Assembly: GCF_003441595.1 (NCBI RefSeq)
Contig: NZ_CP031848.1
Location: 1,178,001 to 1,242,000 of the forward strand
Length of the DNA: 64,000 bases
Direction: 5' to 3'
From: Marinobacter sp. Arc7-DN-1
GTDB taxonomy: Bacteria; Pseudomonadota; Gammaproteobacteria; Pseudomonadales; Oleiphilaceae
Below the pieces are notes generated by a model that saw only the letters and a list, made by a program, of their open reading frames with translations, made no database searches and was not told the DNA's origin. Positions 50,117-55,691 of the stretch are shown here, in pieces. The first letter of the stretch is position 1. Each line of letters starts with the position of its first letter. The position numbers and the translations under genes were made by a program.

Positions 50117-50187
50117 AGTGGGGTCAGATGAAAATGGGGTCAGATGAAATTTTCATCTGACCCCATTTTCATCTGACCCCGATTTCA
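50117..50187. repeat. Family A cluster (GATGAA type) upstream of thiolase
   Basis: GGGGTCAGATGAAAAT twice in tandem, one full hairpin GGGGTCAGATGAAA/TTTCATCTGACCCC and an extra right arm CATTTTCATCTGACCCC. It lies between zapE and the thiolase start. Confidence 0.87.
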
Positions 50188-51318
50188 CGGTTTGTGGGGT
50201 GCTTCGAGGTATTCCCGGGACTGCATTTCCAGCAGGCGGGATTCGGTGCGCTCGAATTCGAAGCTCAGGCGGCCTCCGGTGTAGAGTTCGGTGATGGGGG
50301 CGGCGGCTGAGATGATAACCTTGACGTTTCGGTCGTAAAATTCGTCAATCATGTTAATGAAACGGCGGGCCTGGTCGTCTTTCTCTTTGCCCAGCACGGG
50401 CACGTTGCTGACGATGATGGCGTGGAACTGCCGGGCCATTTCGATGTAATCATTCTGGCTGCGGGGGCCGTCGCAAACGTCTTTGAAATCAAACCAGACC
50501 ACGTCGTCCGCGTGGGCCTGGGCCGGGATTTTGCGGCCGTTGATTTCCATGGTTTTACTGTGTTTCCCGGCTTCAACCGCCAGTCCATCAAAGCTTTTCC
50601 GGAGGCTGACGTCTGCTTCCTTATCCAGGGGCGAGTGGAACAGCTCCGCCTGCTCGAGGGTTCGCAGGCGGTAATCCACGCCGCCGTCGACATTGACCAC
50701 ATCCGTGTGCTTTTTGACCAGCTCGATGGCAGGCAGGAACCGGGCCCGCTGGAGGCCATCCTTGTACAGGCCATCCGGGACGATGTTGGAGGTGCACACC
50801 AGGGTCACGCCCCGGCTGAACAGGCCGTCCATCAGGGTGGCGAGGATCATGGCGTCGCCGATATCCGAGACGAAAAATTCGTCGAAACAGATCACCCGGG
50901 TTTCGTCGGCGAACGTCCTGGAAACCAGCTCCAGGGGGTTCTTCTCGCCCTTGAGGGATTTGAGTTCGTTGTGGACACGCTGCATGAAGCGGTGAAAGTG
51001 AACCCGCATCTTGCGATTGAACGGCAGGGATTCGTAGAAGGTGTCCATCAGGTAGGTTTTACCGCGGCCTACCCCGCCCCAGAAATACAGGCCCTTAACC
51101 GGCTCTTCCCGGCCTTTTTTCAGTTTGCGGCGCAGTTTGGTCATTGCCTTGTCACGATCGCTTTCCGCTTCAACCAGTTTGTCGTACAGTGACTGCAGGC
51201 GCTTGACGGCATCTTCCTGGGCCGGGTCCTTCTGAAAATCCGGGCGTTCAAGATCCTTCTGGTAACGTTGCCAGGGGGTCTGGGTCGCACTGGTTTCGGA
51301 GGACATCGCAGCTGTCAT
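50185..51318 (-). CDS. zapE: Cell-division ATPase ZapE (AFG1 family)
   Basis: About 377 residues from MTAAMSSETSATQTPWQRYQ. Walker A GGVGRGKTYLMD, Walker B VICFDEFFVSD, sensor CTSNIVPDGLY, and the AFG1 tail AAPITELYTGGRLSFEFERT. ZapE binds FtsZ under stress in E. coli. The frame is open up to 51432 but the family start lies at 51318. Confidence 0.93.
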   Translation of the reverse strand: MTAAMSSETSATQTPWQRYQKDLERPDFQKDPAQEDAVKRLQSLYDKLVEAESDRDKAMTKLRRKLKKGREEPVKGLYFWGGVGRGKTYLMDTFYESLPFNRKMRVHFHRFMQRVHNELKSLKGEKNPLELVSRTFADETRVICFDEFFVSDIGDAMILATLMDGLFSRGVTLVCTSNIVPDGLYKDGLQRARFLPAIELVKKHTDVVNVDGGVDYRLRTLEQAELFHSPLDKEADVSLRKSFDGLAVEAGKHSKTMEINGRKIPAQAHADDVVWFDFKDVCDGPRSQNDYIEMARQFHAIIVSNVPVLGKEKDDQARRFINMIDEFYDRNVKVIISAAAPITELYTGGRLSFEFERTESRLLEMQSREYLEAPHKP

Positions 51319-51963: not shown

Positions 51964-52004
51964 TGCCCTGAACTGTATAAGACTGCGGATTTGGTGCTTG
52001 CGCG

Positions 52005-52112
52005 GAGCGGGATGGGCCTGCCAAAACCCGCTCCTTGCGGCACGTCCCTGTGGCGCTTGAGCTCCGCCATCCATGGCTCCGCACAGTTTTGGCAGGCCCA
52101 TCCCGCCCCGCT
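52005..52112. repeat. Family D long inverted-repeat element, copy 1
   Basis: A perfect 21-bp arm at 52007-52027 (GCGGGATGGGCCTGCCAAAA...) is inverted at 52086-52106, with a 58-nt centre. The centre contains CCGCT, CTGTGGCGCTTG and GCCATCCATGG, shared in relaxed form with the elements around hisC. It sits between convergent genes and is a likely two-way terminator. Confidence 0.85.
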
Positions 52113-52166
52113 CGTTCTGACACATCTGCTATTCGCCTTGGTTCCCAGGTCTTATTTCCGTGAACT

Positions 52167-52215
52167 TGGGGTCAGATGAAAGCTTTCATCTGACCCCGTA
52201 TTCGACCCCGTATTC
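52167..52215. repeat. Family A hairpin with extra right-end duplication
   Basis: GGGGTCAGATGAAAGC/TTTCATCTGACCCC followed by two GACCCCGTATTCG words. Confidence 0.8.
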
Positions 52216-52219
52216 GCCG

Positions 52220-52963
52220 CTATACCGGGTTATCGCAATCGATGAATTTGTGCGTTATGCCAAACTCATTAGCCAGCGCCTTCCCGAGAGCCTGCACACC
52301 ATAACGCTCTGTGGCGTGATGACCAGCTGCATAATAGTGGATACCACACTCTCTGGCTGTATGGGTCGTCGGCTCGGAGATTTCACCGCTGATGTAGGCG
52401 TCCAGGCCCGCATCCAGCGCGGTATTTATAAATCCCTGCGCAGCGCCGGTACACCAACCTACGCGTTTGATCGTAGCCGGCCCCTCGCCAACCCAGAGCG
52501 GTTCGCGGTGCAGTCGCCTTGCGAGATGGAGACCGAATTTCTCCGGAGACATTGCCTCCTCAAGCTCACCTTCCCAAACCAGACCGCCTAATGGGCGGGG
52601 CTTTTTGATGCTCAGGACGTCTGCCAACTGGCGGTTGTTACCGTATTCGGGATGGTCATCCAGCGGGAGATGGTAGGCAACGAGGTTGATATCGTTGTCC
52701 AGCAGTTGCTTCAGACGCTCGCGCTTCATGCCCTGGATTCGTTGATCCTCACCTTTCCAGAAGTAGCCATGGTGAACGAGGATCATATCTGCGTTCGCCT
52801 CAATGGCGGCTTCAATCAGCGCTTTTGAGGCGGTTACACCGGAGATAATGGTGTTGATTTCAGACTTGCCTTCAACTTGAAGGCCATTGGGACAGTAATC
52901 CTGGAAGTTCTCTGGCTGCAGCCATTCGTTGATTTTACTCAGGATGTCGTTTCGTTCAGCCAT
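52220..52963 (-). CDS. Nif3-family dinuclear-metal protein (YbgI/DUF34)
   Basis: 247 residues from MAERNDILSKINEWLQPENF. Family motifs YCPNGLQVEG, ANADMILVHHGYFWKGEDQR, KRLKQLLDNDINLVAYHLPL and a late HYYAAGHHATERYGVQAL supply the His/Glu metal ligands. Role still debated. The longer frame to 53065 runs through a family D element, so the ATG at 52963 behind GGAG is the start. Confidence 0.9.
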   Translation of the reverse strand: MAERNDILSKINEWLQPENFQDYCPNGLQVEGKSEINTIISGVTASKALIEAAIEANADMILVHHGYFWKGEDQRIQGMKRERLKQLLDNDINLVAYHLPLDDHPEYGNNRQLADVLSIKKPRPLGGLVWEGELEEAMSPEKFGLHLARRLHREPLWVGEGPATIKRVGWCTGAAQGFINTALDAGLDAYISGEISEPTTHTARECGIHYYAAGHHATERYGVQALGKALANEFGITHKFIDCDNPV

Positions 52964-53000: not shown

Positions 53001-53110
53001 GAGCAAGGCAGGCTGCCCTTTCCGGGAATGTAGAGGGCCATGGATGGCCCGAAACAAGCGCACATGGATGTGCTCGTAGCGGTTCCCGGAAAGGGCTGCC
53101 TGCCTTGCTC
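53001..53110. repeat. Family D element, copy 2, downstream of hisC
   Basis: 28-bp arms at 53001-53028 and 53083-53110 with one mismatch, starting GAGCAAGGCAGG. The 54-nt centre is the reverse complement of the centre at 54229-54282 with one base changed. Confidence 0.9.
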
Positions 53111-53129
53111 TACCCGCTAACTCCGAAGG

Positions 53130-54182
53130 CTAAAGGGTTTCGAGGCCAGCAATCAACGCCTCATTCTGCTCGACCGTGCCAATGGTGATTCGCAGGAATT
53201 CGCTAATTCGTGGCTTGTTGAAGTGCCGGACAATAATGCCCTGCTCCCTCAGGCCCTTGGCCAAAACTTCGCCAGCCTGCTCTTTATGACGGGCAAAAAC
53301 GAAGTTTGCCTTTGAGGGTAACACCTCGAACCCAAGACCTTCGAGGGCGGCGGTTACACGCTCGCGCTCGGAAATCACGCCGTCACAGCACGTGCGGAAC
53401 CAGGCCTCGTCTTCGTAGGCCGCTTGGGCACCAGCAAGGGCCAGACGATCCAGCGGGTAGCTGTTGAAGCTGTTTTTAACCCGGTTCAGGGCTTCAATCA
53501 GGTCCGGGTGCCCTACGGCAAAACCGACTCTCAGGCCGGCGAGAGAGCGGGCCTTGGAGAGGGTTTGGGAAACCAACAGGTTCGGGTACTGGTCGACCAA
53601 AGTAATCGCGCTCTCGCCACCAAAATCAATGTAGGCCTCATCCACGACAACTACCCGGTCGGGATTGGCGATCAGAATTTCTTCGACATGCTGCAATCCG
53701 AGGTAACGGCCAGTCGGGGCGTTCGGATTCGGGAAGATGACGCCGCCATTGGGCTGCTTGTAGTCTTCCGGGTTGATCTCGAAGCTGTCGGTGAGCGGAA
53801 CCGCCTTGCTCGGGATATCGTAGAGCCCGCAATACACCGGATAGAAACTGTAGGTAACGTCCGGAAACAGGACGGGGTCGCCGTGCTGGAACAGGCCGTA
53901 GAAAATGTGGGCCAGGACTTCGTCGGAGCCGTTGCCCAGGAATACCTGCCCGGGCTTGATGCCGTGGTAGGCGGCAATCGTCTGGCGCAGGCTTTCACCT
54001 TCCGGGTCCGGGTAGAGGCGGAGGTTGTCGTTCAGTTCAGCCTGGATGGCTTCGATGACTTTTGGTGAGGGGCCGAAGGGGTTTTCGTTGGTGTTCAGCT
54101 TCACCAGATTGGCCATTTTTGGCTGTTCGCCAGGGACATACGGGACCAGGTCGTTTACCAGGGGGCTCCAGAATTTACTCAT
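53130..54182 (-). CDS. hisC: Histidinol-phosphate aminotransferase
   Basis: 350 residues of class II PLP aminotransferases: [52 protein letters not shown] and the PLP lysine [17 protein letters not shown]. Makes histidinol phosphate from imidazole-acetol phosphate. It sits after hisG-hisD, though family D elements now lie on both sides, which may uncouple it from the operon. Confidence 0.95.
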
Positions 54183-54200
54183 TTTTGGCTCCGAGTAGAC

Positions 54201-54310
54201 GGCAGGTGGGCGAGGCTCCGCCCGGGAACCGCTACGAGCACATCCATGTGCGCTTGTTTCGGGTCATCCATGGCCCTCTACATTCCCGGGCGGAGCCTCG
54301 CCCACCTGCC
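54201..54310. repeat. Family D element, copy 3, upstream of hisC
   Basis: Perfect 28-bp arms at 54201-54228 and 54283-54310, starting GGCAGGTGGGCGAGGCTCCG. The centre (CCGCTACGAGCACATCCATG...) contains the nested palindromes CACATCCATGTG and CCATCCATGG. It lies opposite in orientation to copy 2. Confidence 0.92.
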
Positions 54311-54334: not shown

Positions 54335-54376
54335 ATGAACATGGGGTCAGAAGAACGCGTTCTTCTGACCCCGAGG
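54335..54376. repeat. Family A hairpin (GAAGAA type)
   Basis: GGGGTCAGAAGAACGC and GTTCTTCTGACCCC; a short ATGGGGTCATGAAC half copy precedes it. Confidence 0.85.
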
Positions 54377-54386
54377 TCCGATCACA

Positions 54387-55691
54387 TTACTCTTTGATTC
54401 GATACTCCGCCGACCGGGCATGGGCCGTTAACCCTTCACCCCGGGCCAGCACTGACGCCACACGCCCCATACGATCGGCACCTTCGGCACTGAAACCAAT
54501 GATGGAGGACCGCTTCTGGAAGTCATAGACGCCCAGAGGCGAGGAGAACCGCGCAGTGCCGCTGGTAGGCAGAACATGGTTCGGGCCAGCGCAGTAGTCG
54601 CCGAGGGCCTCAGCGGTGTAACGGCCCATGAAGATAGCGCCGGCGTGGCGGATGTCTTCGAGCATGGCTTCGGGGTCTTCCACCGAGAGCTCAAGGTGTT
54701 CCGGGGCGATGCGGTTGGAGACAGCCGCGGCTTCTTTCAGGTCGGCGACCTGAATAAGCGCGGCGCGGTCGGTCATGGAGGTGCGGATGATATCGGCTCG
54801 CTCCAAGGTGGGCAGCAATTTGTTGATGCTGGCTTCGACCGCATCGAGGAAAGCCGCGTCCGGGCTGACCAGGATGGACTGGGCCTGTTCGTCGTGTTCG
54901 GCCTGAGAAAAGAGGTCCATGGCGATCCAGTCCGGGTCGGTTCTGCCATCGCAGATTACCAGGATTTCCGAGGGGCCTGCGATCATGTCGATGCCGACAA
55001 CGCCGAAGACTTCCCGCTTGGCGGTCGCAACGAAGATATTGCCCGGGCCTACGATTTTATCGACAGCCGGGATGGTTTCGGTGCCATAGGCCAGGGCGCC
55101 CACTGCCTGAGCCCCGCCCACGGTGAAGACACGGTCAACACCTGCAATTGCAGCAGAAGCCAAGACCATGTCGTTCACTACACCATCGGGCGTTGGAACA
55201 ACCATGATCACTTCGCTCACACCGGCAACTTTCGCCGGAATGGCGTTCATCAGTACCGAGGACGGATAAGCCGCCTTACCGCCGGGCACATACAACCCGG
55301 CCCGATCCAGCGGCGTGACCTTCTGGCCAAGCACGGTGCCGTCTTCGTCCTCATACTGCCAGGACTTCTGGTTCTGCCGCTCGTGGTAATCCCGAACCCG
55401 CTCGGCCGCTTTCTCAAGAGCCACGCGTTGGTCCTGGGGAATCGCTTCCAGCGCTTGCTGCAAACGGCTCTGGTCCATTTCCAGCTCGGCGACAGAATCA
55501 ACCTTCAAACGATCAAACTTTTCGGTAAATTCCAGAACCGCCTGATCGCCGCGGGTTTTCACCTCATGCAGGATATGACGCACCGACTCGTTCACCTGAT
55601 GATCAACGCTGTCGTCCCAGGCCAGCAGTTTGGCCAGAGAACTGTCGAAGTCACTGTTTGAGGTGTTCAGTCGTTTGATGCTAACGGTCAT
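54387..55691 (-). CDS. hisD: Histidinol dehydrogenase
   Basis: 434 residues: [84 protein letters not shown] and [12 protein letters not shown], covering the zinc and NAD sites. Two-step oxidation of histidinol to histidine. Confidence 0.96.

What the first reader, a model, noticed from the sequence alone, without database searches (positions are those of the whole stretch)
53001..54310. Long inverted repeats with a fixed centre and unrelated arms flank hisC
Seen: elements at 53001-53110 and 54201-54310 have 54-nt centres that differ by one base (in opposite orientation), yet their 28-bp arms are different sequences that each pair almost perfectly with themselves. A third, more distant one is at 52005-52112. 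Normal decay would break arms before the centre changed. So the arms must be rewritten as a pair: by palindrome correction during replication, or because each insertion copies an arm sequence. I know of no described family with this behaviour. Nested words CATCCATG and ACATCCATGT lie in the centre.
Basis: partly seen in the sequence, partly recalled or inferred. Interest (0 to 1): 0.75.

Follow-up and report, generated by a model that had tools for sequence, protein, structure and literature searches.

The report
Dispersed twin-hairpin RNA repeats around hisC
The three palindromes near hisC are copies of a repeat, present about a hundred times in this marine bacterium, whose one strand folds into a long stem carrying two hairpins shaped like docking sites for the regulator protein CsrA; the stem sequences drift but stay paired largely step by step, so no special 'paired rewriting' is needed to explain most of them.

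Summary
Observation confirmed, interpretation mostly not. The window (Marinobacter) holds three copies of a dispersed, mostly intergenic repeat (52002-52111, 53001-53110, 54201-54310); the genome holds about 103. On one strand each folds as a long outer stem (the arms) around two hairpins whose loops read A-N-G-G-A-Y; CATCCATG is the complement of such a loop. The closest described family is the Rfam TwoAYGGAY RNA, in one Rfam clan with RsmZ; no copy here reaches its cut-off. The arms stay paired specifically on that strand (G-T 60, A-C 8 in 101 own-genome copies). Where intergenics have hardly changed between species, one-sided arm changes outnumber two-sided ones 38 to 6; six of eight sites lacking an element show no arm beyond chance; the arms share a consensus. 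So arms are inherited and drift mainly by stepwise compensation; paired rewriting (template switching, already described) is at most a minor part. Loop evolution fits CsrA's known site: N differs in 27% of comparisons, A, G, G and A in 1.4-2.4%. Two sites 23-25 nt apart suit one CsrA dimer. Transcription, CsrA binding and the way of spreading are inferred, not shown; orientation relative to genes is near random, so a single-stranded-DNA role remains a rival.

The parts
54201..54310 (-). element 1, folded strand is minus; arms 54283-54310 (5' on that strand) and 54201-54228, centre 54229-54282
   Evidence: 113.5 bits
54265..54272 (-). hairpin 1 loop with closing pair, CATGGATG
54239..54250 (-). 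hairpin 2 CACATGGATGTG (ACA-N-GGA-N-GU type)
53001..53110 (+). element 2, folded strand is plus; arms 53001-53028 and 53083-53110, centre 53029-53082; antisense to hisC and to the gene at 52220-52963
   Evidence: 115.1 bits
53039..53046 (+). hairpin 1 loop with closing pair, CATGGATG
53061..53072 (+). hairpin 2 CACATGGATGTG
52002..52111 (-). element 3 (other core subfamily); arms 52086-52111 and 52002-52027
   Evidence: TwoAYGGAY 32.8 bits; 77.3 bits
52068..52075 (-). hairpin 1 loop with closing pair, CATGGATG
52041..52052 (-). hairpin 2 CACAGGGACGTG
54387..55691 (-). hisD (434 aa; name recalled)
52220..52963 (-). Nif3-like protein gene (name recalled)

Best explanation
The elements are members of a dispersed, mostly intergenic repeat family of Marinobacter and scattered other Gammaproteobacteria. 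One strand folds into an outer stem of about 28 bp (the arms) that presents two hairpins with A-N-G-G-A-Y loops, mostly 23-25 nt apart. SHOWN by sequence: the pairing, its strand specificity, the loop constraint, the copy number, and presence/absence at orthologous sites. INFERRED: the folded strand works as RNA, its two loops hold one CsrA dimer (a small CsrA decoy or docking site), and about 100 copies add up to a distributed titration site. The arms only have to be a stem, so their sequence is largely free. New copies bring their arms with them; afterwards the arms drift mainly by single substitutions, tolerated first as G-U pairs or weak mismatches and then compensated, and recombination between species swaps old diverged versions of an intergenic region, which makes many base pairs differ at once.
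For: Stem: on A1 (24 own copies, chosen for at least 22 of 26 paired arm positions) 25 of 26 arm pairs show changes on both sides; whole-structure covariation score 0.771 against 0.178 shuffled. Strand: non-Watson-Crick arm pairs are G-T 60, A-C 8, other 39 in 101 own copies (p 6e-11), and 87 against 11 in 105 of 109 copies, own and relatives, found by their centre alone. Loops: in ortholog comparisons the loop N changed in 78 of 286, A/G/G/A in 5, 4, 7 of 286 and 4 of 285, rest of centre 229 of 4718. 95 of 103 own copies have two or more ANGGA loops with closing pairs, 93 of these 95 spaced 23-25 nt. 69 of 103 match at least 10 of 12 letters of the SELEX consensus RUACARGGAUGU on the folded strand, 0 of 103 on the other, 19 of 2060 shuffled centres. 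The consensus, GGA in hairpin loops, and bridging over 10-63 nt come from passages of PMC7652899. One csrA gene is present and its product keeps R44. Rfam lists TwoAYGGAY and PrrB/RsmZ under one clan, CL00106; TwoAYGGAY was proposed to bind CsrA (PMC4333381, passages). Stepwise change.
Against: No expression or binding data. Orientation relative to co-directional genes is not clearly biased (++ 38 / -- 24 own, p 0.10; 16/16, 18/19, 20/19 in three relatives), and the strand asymmetry holds for copies antisense to both neighbours (12:1 and 33:7), so host mRNAs cannot be the only carrier; no promoter was shown. MFE folding alone gives two GGA loops in only 70 of 103 own copies, and both strands of the window elements fold about equally well. 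Most SELEX ligands of CsrA had four or fewer contiguous pairs, unlike this very stable outer stem. Two-sided changes exceed a simple stepwise expectation in the low-divergence class (6 against about 1.6 to 3, my hand estimate; p 0.006 to 0.08), and the concerted term is supported in two of three comparisons. Adjacent double changes are enriched (24 vs 15.4, 25 vs 15.5, 30 vs 16.2), though uneven rates along the arm could do this.
Confidence: 0.6

Rival explanations
1. Single-stranded DNA element: the same strand folds as ssDNA and is the substrate of a transposase or similar enzyme; loops and stem are conserved for mobility, and there is no RNA function.
For: Copies are mostly intergenic, presence/absence differs between species, several lie in back-to-back pairs with the minus copy first, orientation to genes is near random, and G-T is also better tolerated than A-C in DNA (recalled). 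Another genome (G190) has ten copies near-identical in arms and flanks.
Against: The free N inside an otherwise fixed A-N-G-G-A and the match to the CsrA SELEX consensus are not expected of a transposon end; no target duplication was established and no partner enzyme was searched for.
Confidence: 0.2
2. Concerted rewriting: palindrome correction by template switching during replication copies one arm onto the other, and this dominates arm evolution.
For: 90, 100 and 98 two-sided Watson-Crick changes in 1368, 1183 and 1522 ortholog pairs; 39, 43 and 45 of them are transversions, which cannot pass through G-U. Concerted term 2dlnL 15.0 and 10.4 in two comparisons. Adjacent doubles enriched. Mechanism in print (PMC8794818, abstract and one section).
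Against: One-sided changes dominate in the little-changed class (38 to 6). Two-sided changes concentrate at sites whose unpaired flanks are about as diverged and follow shared versions across species. 2dlnL 0.04 in the third comparison. It does not explain G-T over A-C.
Confidence: 0.12
3. REP/BIME-like mRNA stabiliser or terminator stem without a dedicated protein partner.
For: Mostly intergenic, strong stems, in operons (hisD-hisC) and between convergent genes.
Against: T-rich stretch just downstream in 2 of 103 copies on either strand, against 5% of random places; loop constraint unexplained; 24 of 62 co-directional copies are antisense.
Confidence: 0.06
4. The centre inserts into pre-existing hairpins, or each insertion copies target DNA into an arm.
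For: A hisD-hisC site with arms but no centre exists (L137).
Against: Six of eight sites lacking an element show no arm match beyond chance, and closely spaced hisD-hisC sites hold no palindrome. L137 fits deletion between the TTCCCGGGAA repeats that both arm ends carry (inference). Arms share a consensus.
Confidence: 0.02

Closest known systems
TwoAYGGAY RNA (Rfam RF01731; table row in PMC2864571)
   Same: Two hairpins with AYGGAY loops on a long, poorly conserved outer stem, same strand; full-length model match of window element 3 and 43 own-genome places at E<=1, none in 14 control genomes.
   Different: No copy reaches the gathering score (best 42.6 of 43 bits), and the own-genome search listed 43 places where model R1 finds about 103. 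Here the element is a many-copy repeat; the passages seen call the motif a probable RNA or one of unknown function.
CsrA/RsmA-sequestering sRNAs (PrrB/RsmZ RF00166, same Rfam clan CL00106)
   Same: ANGGA in hairpin loops, spacing that one dimer can bridge.
   Different: Two sites per copy and many dispersed copies, instead of one locus with many sites; RF00166 itself finds nothing over its cut-off in this genome (best 18.1 of 44 bits).
REP/BIME elements (features recalled)
   Same: Extragenic, dispersed, palindromic, some in inverted pairs.
   Different: Longer, with two conserved protein-site-like loops; the REP tetranucleotide and a RAYT gene were not searched for.
Template-switch maintenance of RNA stems (PMC8794818)
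   Different: Not needed for most changes here.

Membership tests
TwoAYGGAY RNA (RF01731) | two hairpins with AYGGAY terminal loops | tested here: met
   95 of 103 own copies have two or more ANGGA hexaloops with closing pairs; the loop N is any base, so many loops are ANGGAY rather than AYGGAY
TwoAYGGAY RNA (RF01731) | score at or above Rfam gathering threshold | tested here: not met
   window 0 matches; own genome 0 of 43 over cut-off; 16 loci of other genera 0
TwoAYGGAY RNA (RF01731) | external stem enclosing both hairpins | tested here: met
   26 arm pairs, 98.7% paired, 25 with changes on both sides, in 24 copies preselected for pairing
TwoAYGGAY RNA (RF01731) | tandem G-A pairs in one stem (passage in PMC4333381) | tested here: inconclusive
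   GGA/GGA or GA/GA opposed in many copies, plain helix in others, by eye
CsrA-binding RNA | ANGGA in hairpin loops under constraint | tested here: met
   N 27%, A/G/G/A 1.4-2.4% substituted
CsrA-binding RNA | csrA gene in the genome | tested here: met
CsrA-binding RNA | transcribed and bound by CsrA | not testable with these tools
   no RNA-seq or binding data
CsrB/RsmZ sRNA | many GGA sites in one autonomous transcript | tested here: not met
   two loops in 93 of 103 elements; no RF00166 match over cut-off; CsrB RF00018 and RsmY not searched
MITE / transposon-derived repeat | presence/absence at orthologous sites | tested here: met
   direction (gain or loss) not proven at each site
MITE / transposon-derived repeat | defined ends and target-site duplication | tested here: inconclusive
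   weak tails (CCAAA, AGGCTA on the right; AAGTTT, GACTAT on the left); no duplication established
REP/BIME | partner RAYT transposase and REP tetranucleotide | not tested
   not searched
intrinsic terminator | T-run after the stem | tested here: not met
   at least 5 T in 8 of the first 13 nt downstream: 2 of 103 on either strand, 150 of 3000 random places

The most novel reading that the evidence does not exclude
A mobile or formerly mobile repeat family has seeded about a hundred ready-made CsrA-dimer binding hairpins across the genomes of nearly a whole genus (a match in 122 of 124 Marinobacter genomes; 105, 86, 94 and 80 matches in the four searched more fully) and patchily across the class (47 of 369, own genome included, a lower bound): a dispersed counterpart of the CsrB/RsmZ sponge, either a selfish repeat that exploits CsrA or a domesticated one that buffers it.
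Probability: 0.35. Interest if true: 0.8.

Novelty: new variant of a known kind. Interest (0 to 1): 0.55.

Why it matters
If the elements bind CsrA, a global regulator's free level would depend on a hundred dispersed repeats whose number differs between species; I found no report of this in the searches, most of whose papers I saw only as listings. They also give a rare large natural experiment on how RNA stems keep pairing: about a hundred 28-bp stems per genome, many alignable between species.

Tried and rejected
Considered and rejected: arms made anew at each insertion, and a centre inserted into older hairpins; a terminator; membership of TwoAYGGAY proper (threshold not met). My own first reading, that 90 two-sided changes prove concerted rewriting, was dropped: those changes sit at sites whose unpaired flanks are about as diverged and whose versions are shared across species. 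TATATC, a possible promoter-like word, was found 6 times in 103 left flanks and not pursued. RF00166 gave only sub-threshold matches, as in 8 of 14 control genomes. The paper search for the string CATCCATG is uninformative: 2,826 papers hold it and 20 titles were seen. PMC5864184, which shared several search words, was opened by passages; it describes three CsrA-sequestering sRNAs at one Alteromonas locus, and no dispersed repeat appears in the passages shown.

Limits: the gene caller was home-made and was checked only against the printed part of the window (50-57 kb). The 5% flank threshold for the two classes was set after seeing the data. The three species comparisons share genomes and are not independent. 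Model R1 may score G-U pairs more kindly than A-C, so the centre-only set is the cleaner strand test; its seed pattern fixed parts of the loops, so the loop claim rests, where the query copy was chosen by the A-N-GGA pattern and only the partner copy is free of that choice. Rows dropped before counts: from 112 matches in overlapping loci to 106 unique, then two elements read on both strands and one partial match (103), then two copies shorter than 95 nt (101); 4 of 109 with weak arms; the 44 place counts keep the two double-read rows. G001 and G019 elements compared are those in fetched stretches, not all matches.

Full report
What is there. The two palindromes around hisC and the third one beyond the next gene are real and are copies of one element. 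Their arms pair 28 of 28, 27 of 28 and 25 of 26. The two large copies are inverted copies of each other over 68 nt with one difference, so the shared part includes the innermost 7 bp of the arms. A covariance model built from 24 own-genome copies (the two large window copies among them) finds three and only three elements in the 64 kb at E<=0.01, and RNA folding is 7 to 10 standard deviations better than shuffles on either strand.

How many. The window lies in a single-contig genome of 4.30 Mb. Its closest named hisC relatives are Marinobacter, 75 to 92% identical over the nine listed. A 110-nt query gave 44 matches in the own genome, 32 of them at E below 1e-9, the query itself included. The model found 105 matches at E<=0.01 among the 150 candidates scored; after removing duplicates and a fragment 103 elements were studied. 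In the genus 122 of 124 genomes have at least one match at E<=0.001, with at most 31 candidates scored per genome. In a sample of the class 47 of 369, own genome included, have one at E<=1e-6, with only 10 candidates scored per genome, so this is a lower bound.

Which strand. The words CATCCATG and ACATCCATGT are complements of CATGGATG and ACATGGATGT. On that other strand each element reads: 5' arm, hairpin with loop A-N-G-G-A-Y, spacer, second hairpin with loop A-N-G-G-A-Y, 3' arm (a few copies deviate). Non-Watson-Crick pairs in the arms tell which strand folds. In 101 own copies there are 60 G-T against 8 A-C pairs on the AYGGAY strand, 39 other mismatches and 2748 Watson-Crick pairs (p 6e-11). 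In 105 of 109 copies found by their centre alone it is 87 against 11. In 35 matches from other genera it is 21 against 7 (p 0.013). A feature selected only as double-stranded DNA should show no such asymmetry (inference). The asymmetry is also present in copies antisense to both neighbours (12:1 own, 33:7 in three relatives), so it belongs to the element and not only to the host mRNA; in the relatives it is stronger in sense copies (53:2, p 0.03), in the own genome not (33:3, p 1).

What the loops say. Among orthologous copies in three Marinobacter species the loop letters differed as follows: A 5 of 286, N 78 of 286, G 4 of 286, G 7 of 286, A 4 of 285, last letter 24 of 285 (22 of the 24 C/T), closing pair 5 of 572, rest of the centre 229 of 4718. 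The pattern A-N-G-G-A with a free N is the CsrA/RsmA site (ANGGA in PMC9788540, passages; SELEX consensus RUACARGGAUGU, GGA in hairpin loops in 51 of 55 ligands, and bridging of two sites 10 to 63 nt apart in PMC7652899, passages). Of 103 own copies, 69 match that 12-letter consensus at 10 or more positions on the folded strand, 0 of 103 on the other strand, and 19 of 2060 shuffled centres. The exact 12-mer occurs three times in the genome, two of them inside elements (one search compared). Ninety-five of 103 have two or more such loops; of the 95 GGA spacings 93 are 23-25 nt and two are 37 nt. Plain MFE folding shows two GGA loops in 70 of 103 copies, so the two-hairpin fold is not always the computed optimum. 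The genome has one csrA match, and its 65-residue product keeps R44, a residue tested in CsrA.

How the arms change. At the hisC-nif3 site the element is present in 32 of 38 Marinobacter stretches with diverged arms that still pair. At the hisD-hisC site it is present in some and absent in others, where the genes are 0 to 8 nt apart or, in three, 34 to 63 nt; L048, L134, L136 and L137 have longer intergenics with no complete element. In 48 orthologous elements of two species (G001, G019), 90 of 1368 arm pairs differ on both sides and remain Watson-Crick, 84 differ on one side. Three further results argue otherwise. First, in the class where the flanks have hardly changed (5% or less) one-sided changes lead, 9, 13 and 16 against 1, 3 and 2 two-sided in the three comparisons (1652 pairs in all). 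Second, two-sided changes are found mainly where the unpaired flanks are also diverged (0-20 nt outside the arms: 22 to 25% against 1.6 to 2.8%). Such diverged versions are shared across species without regard to one tree, for example nearly identical in G019 and G107 and about 10 to 15% different in G001 (L270), while other intergenic regions without an element differ by 0 to 3.7% (9 regions), 1.1 to 9.9% (7) and 1.1 to 8.2% (5) in the three comparisons. I read this as old versions exchanged by recombination. Third, a 16-state model of single substitutions under selection, with the age of each site free, gives costs of G-U 2.5-3.0, A-C 3.2-4.1 and other 3.4-4.1 in scaled units; adding a concerted term improves fit by 2dlnL 15.0, 10.4 and 0.04, the first two sharing genome G001. 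So a template-switch contribution is possible (adjacent double changes are also enriched; transversions make up 39 of 90, 43 of 100 and 45 of 98 double changes) but is not required for most changes.

Where arms come from. Left arms of 101 own copies share a consensus (gggGGGgGGGgagggCcTTCCAAAAC, 16 bits over 26 columns), and the closest pair of arms matches at 23 of 26 positions, reached by 2% of 200 column-shuffled sets. In a genome of another family (G190, a fragmented assembly) ten copies are near-identical in arms and in the flanks printed. Of eight sites lacking an element that is present in a relative, six show arm matches of 5 to 8 nt, the range of random windows, and two show 10 and 13 nt where the junction lies in or beside another element; the clearest is L218 against L386, about 210 nt against 2. 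Arms therefore seem to travel with the centre and diverge later. One species keeps the arms of the hisD-hisC element without the centre (L137), as expected from deletion between the TTCCCGGGAA repeats at the inner ends of both arms; another (L136) shows an internal deletion (the mechanisms are inferred).

What it works like and what it is. The architecture is that of the TwoAYGGAY RNA: window element 3 matches that model over its full length (32.8 bits, E 0.012), 43 places in the genome match at E<=1 and none of 14 control genomes does, but none reaches the cut-off of 43 bits (best 42.6). I therefore call it a relative, not a member. The 2010 description rates that motif a probable RNA that is probably not cis-regulatory (PMC2864571, table row), whereas Rfam types it as cis-regulatory; a later paper proposed CsrA binding for its core (PMC4333381, passages); the present Rfam copy places it in clan CL00106 with PrrB/RsmZ. 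That such elements form a family of about 100 dispersed copies per genome was not found in the searches (7 papers hold the name, 5 listed, 3 opened by passages).

What remains open. Neither transcription nor CsrA binding is shown. Copies lie in both orientations relative to co-directional genes (38 sense, 24 antisense in the own genome, p 0.10; 16/16, 18/19, 20/19 in three relatives), so either they have their own transcription or the folded form that matters is single-stranded DNA. How they spread is unknown.

Noticed in passing
window, e.g. 52161-52198 and 54336-54373: GGGGTCAGA palindromes (GGGGTCAGATGAAAGCTTTCATCTGACCCC type): 54 half-sites in 64 kb against 0.67 expected; a second, REP-like repeat family, two copies of which lie next to the elements.
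   Followed up: no
L044, L052, L126, L129, L149, L151; own genome L026 near 1671081: A long form of the element in which hairpin 2 carries a structured insert of roughly 75-100 nt (ATGAAGC..GCTTCAT, CAGCAATC..GATTGCTG, GGACCCGC..GCGGG); no Rfam match for the one tested, L129.
   Followed up: partly
G000, G001, G019, G107: Several elements occur as back-to-back pairs about 150-285 nt apart (start to start); in the pairs I noted the minus-strand copy comes first.
   Followed up: no
G001/G019/G107 intergenic regions: Intergenic regions that carry an element exist as nearly identical or strongly diverged versions shared across species, while the few element-free ones examined differ by 0-10%.
   Followed up: partly
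L044 6040-6187: In a metagenome-assembled Marinobacter contig half an element interrupts hisC near the contig end; possibly an assembly artefact.
   Followed up: no
G190 contigs C188, C412, C326 and others: Ten copies near-identical in arms and in the flanks printed: the element seems to sit inside a larger, recently amplified repeat, or the assembly repeats a region.
   Followed up: no
window 50698-50709, minus strand: A fourth CACANGGAYGTG word lies inside the gene at 50185-51306 and is not part of an element by model R1.
   Followed up: no
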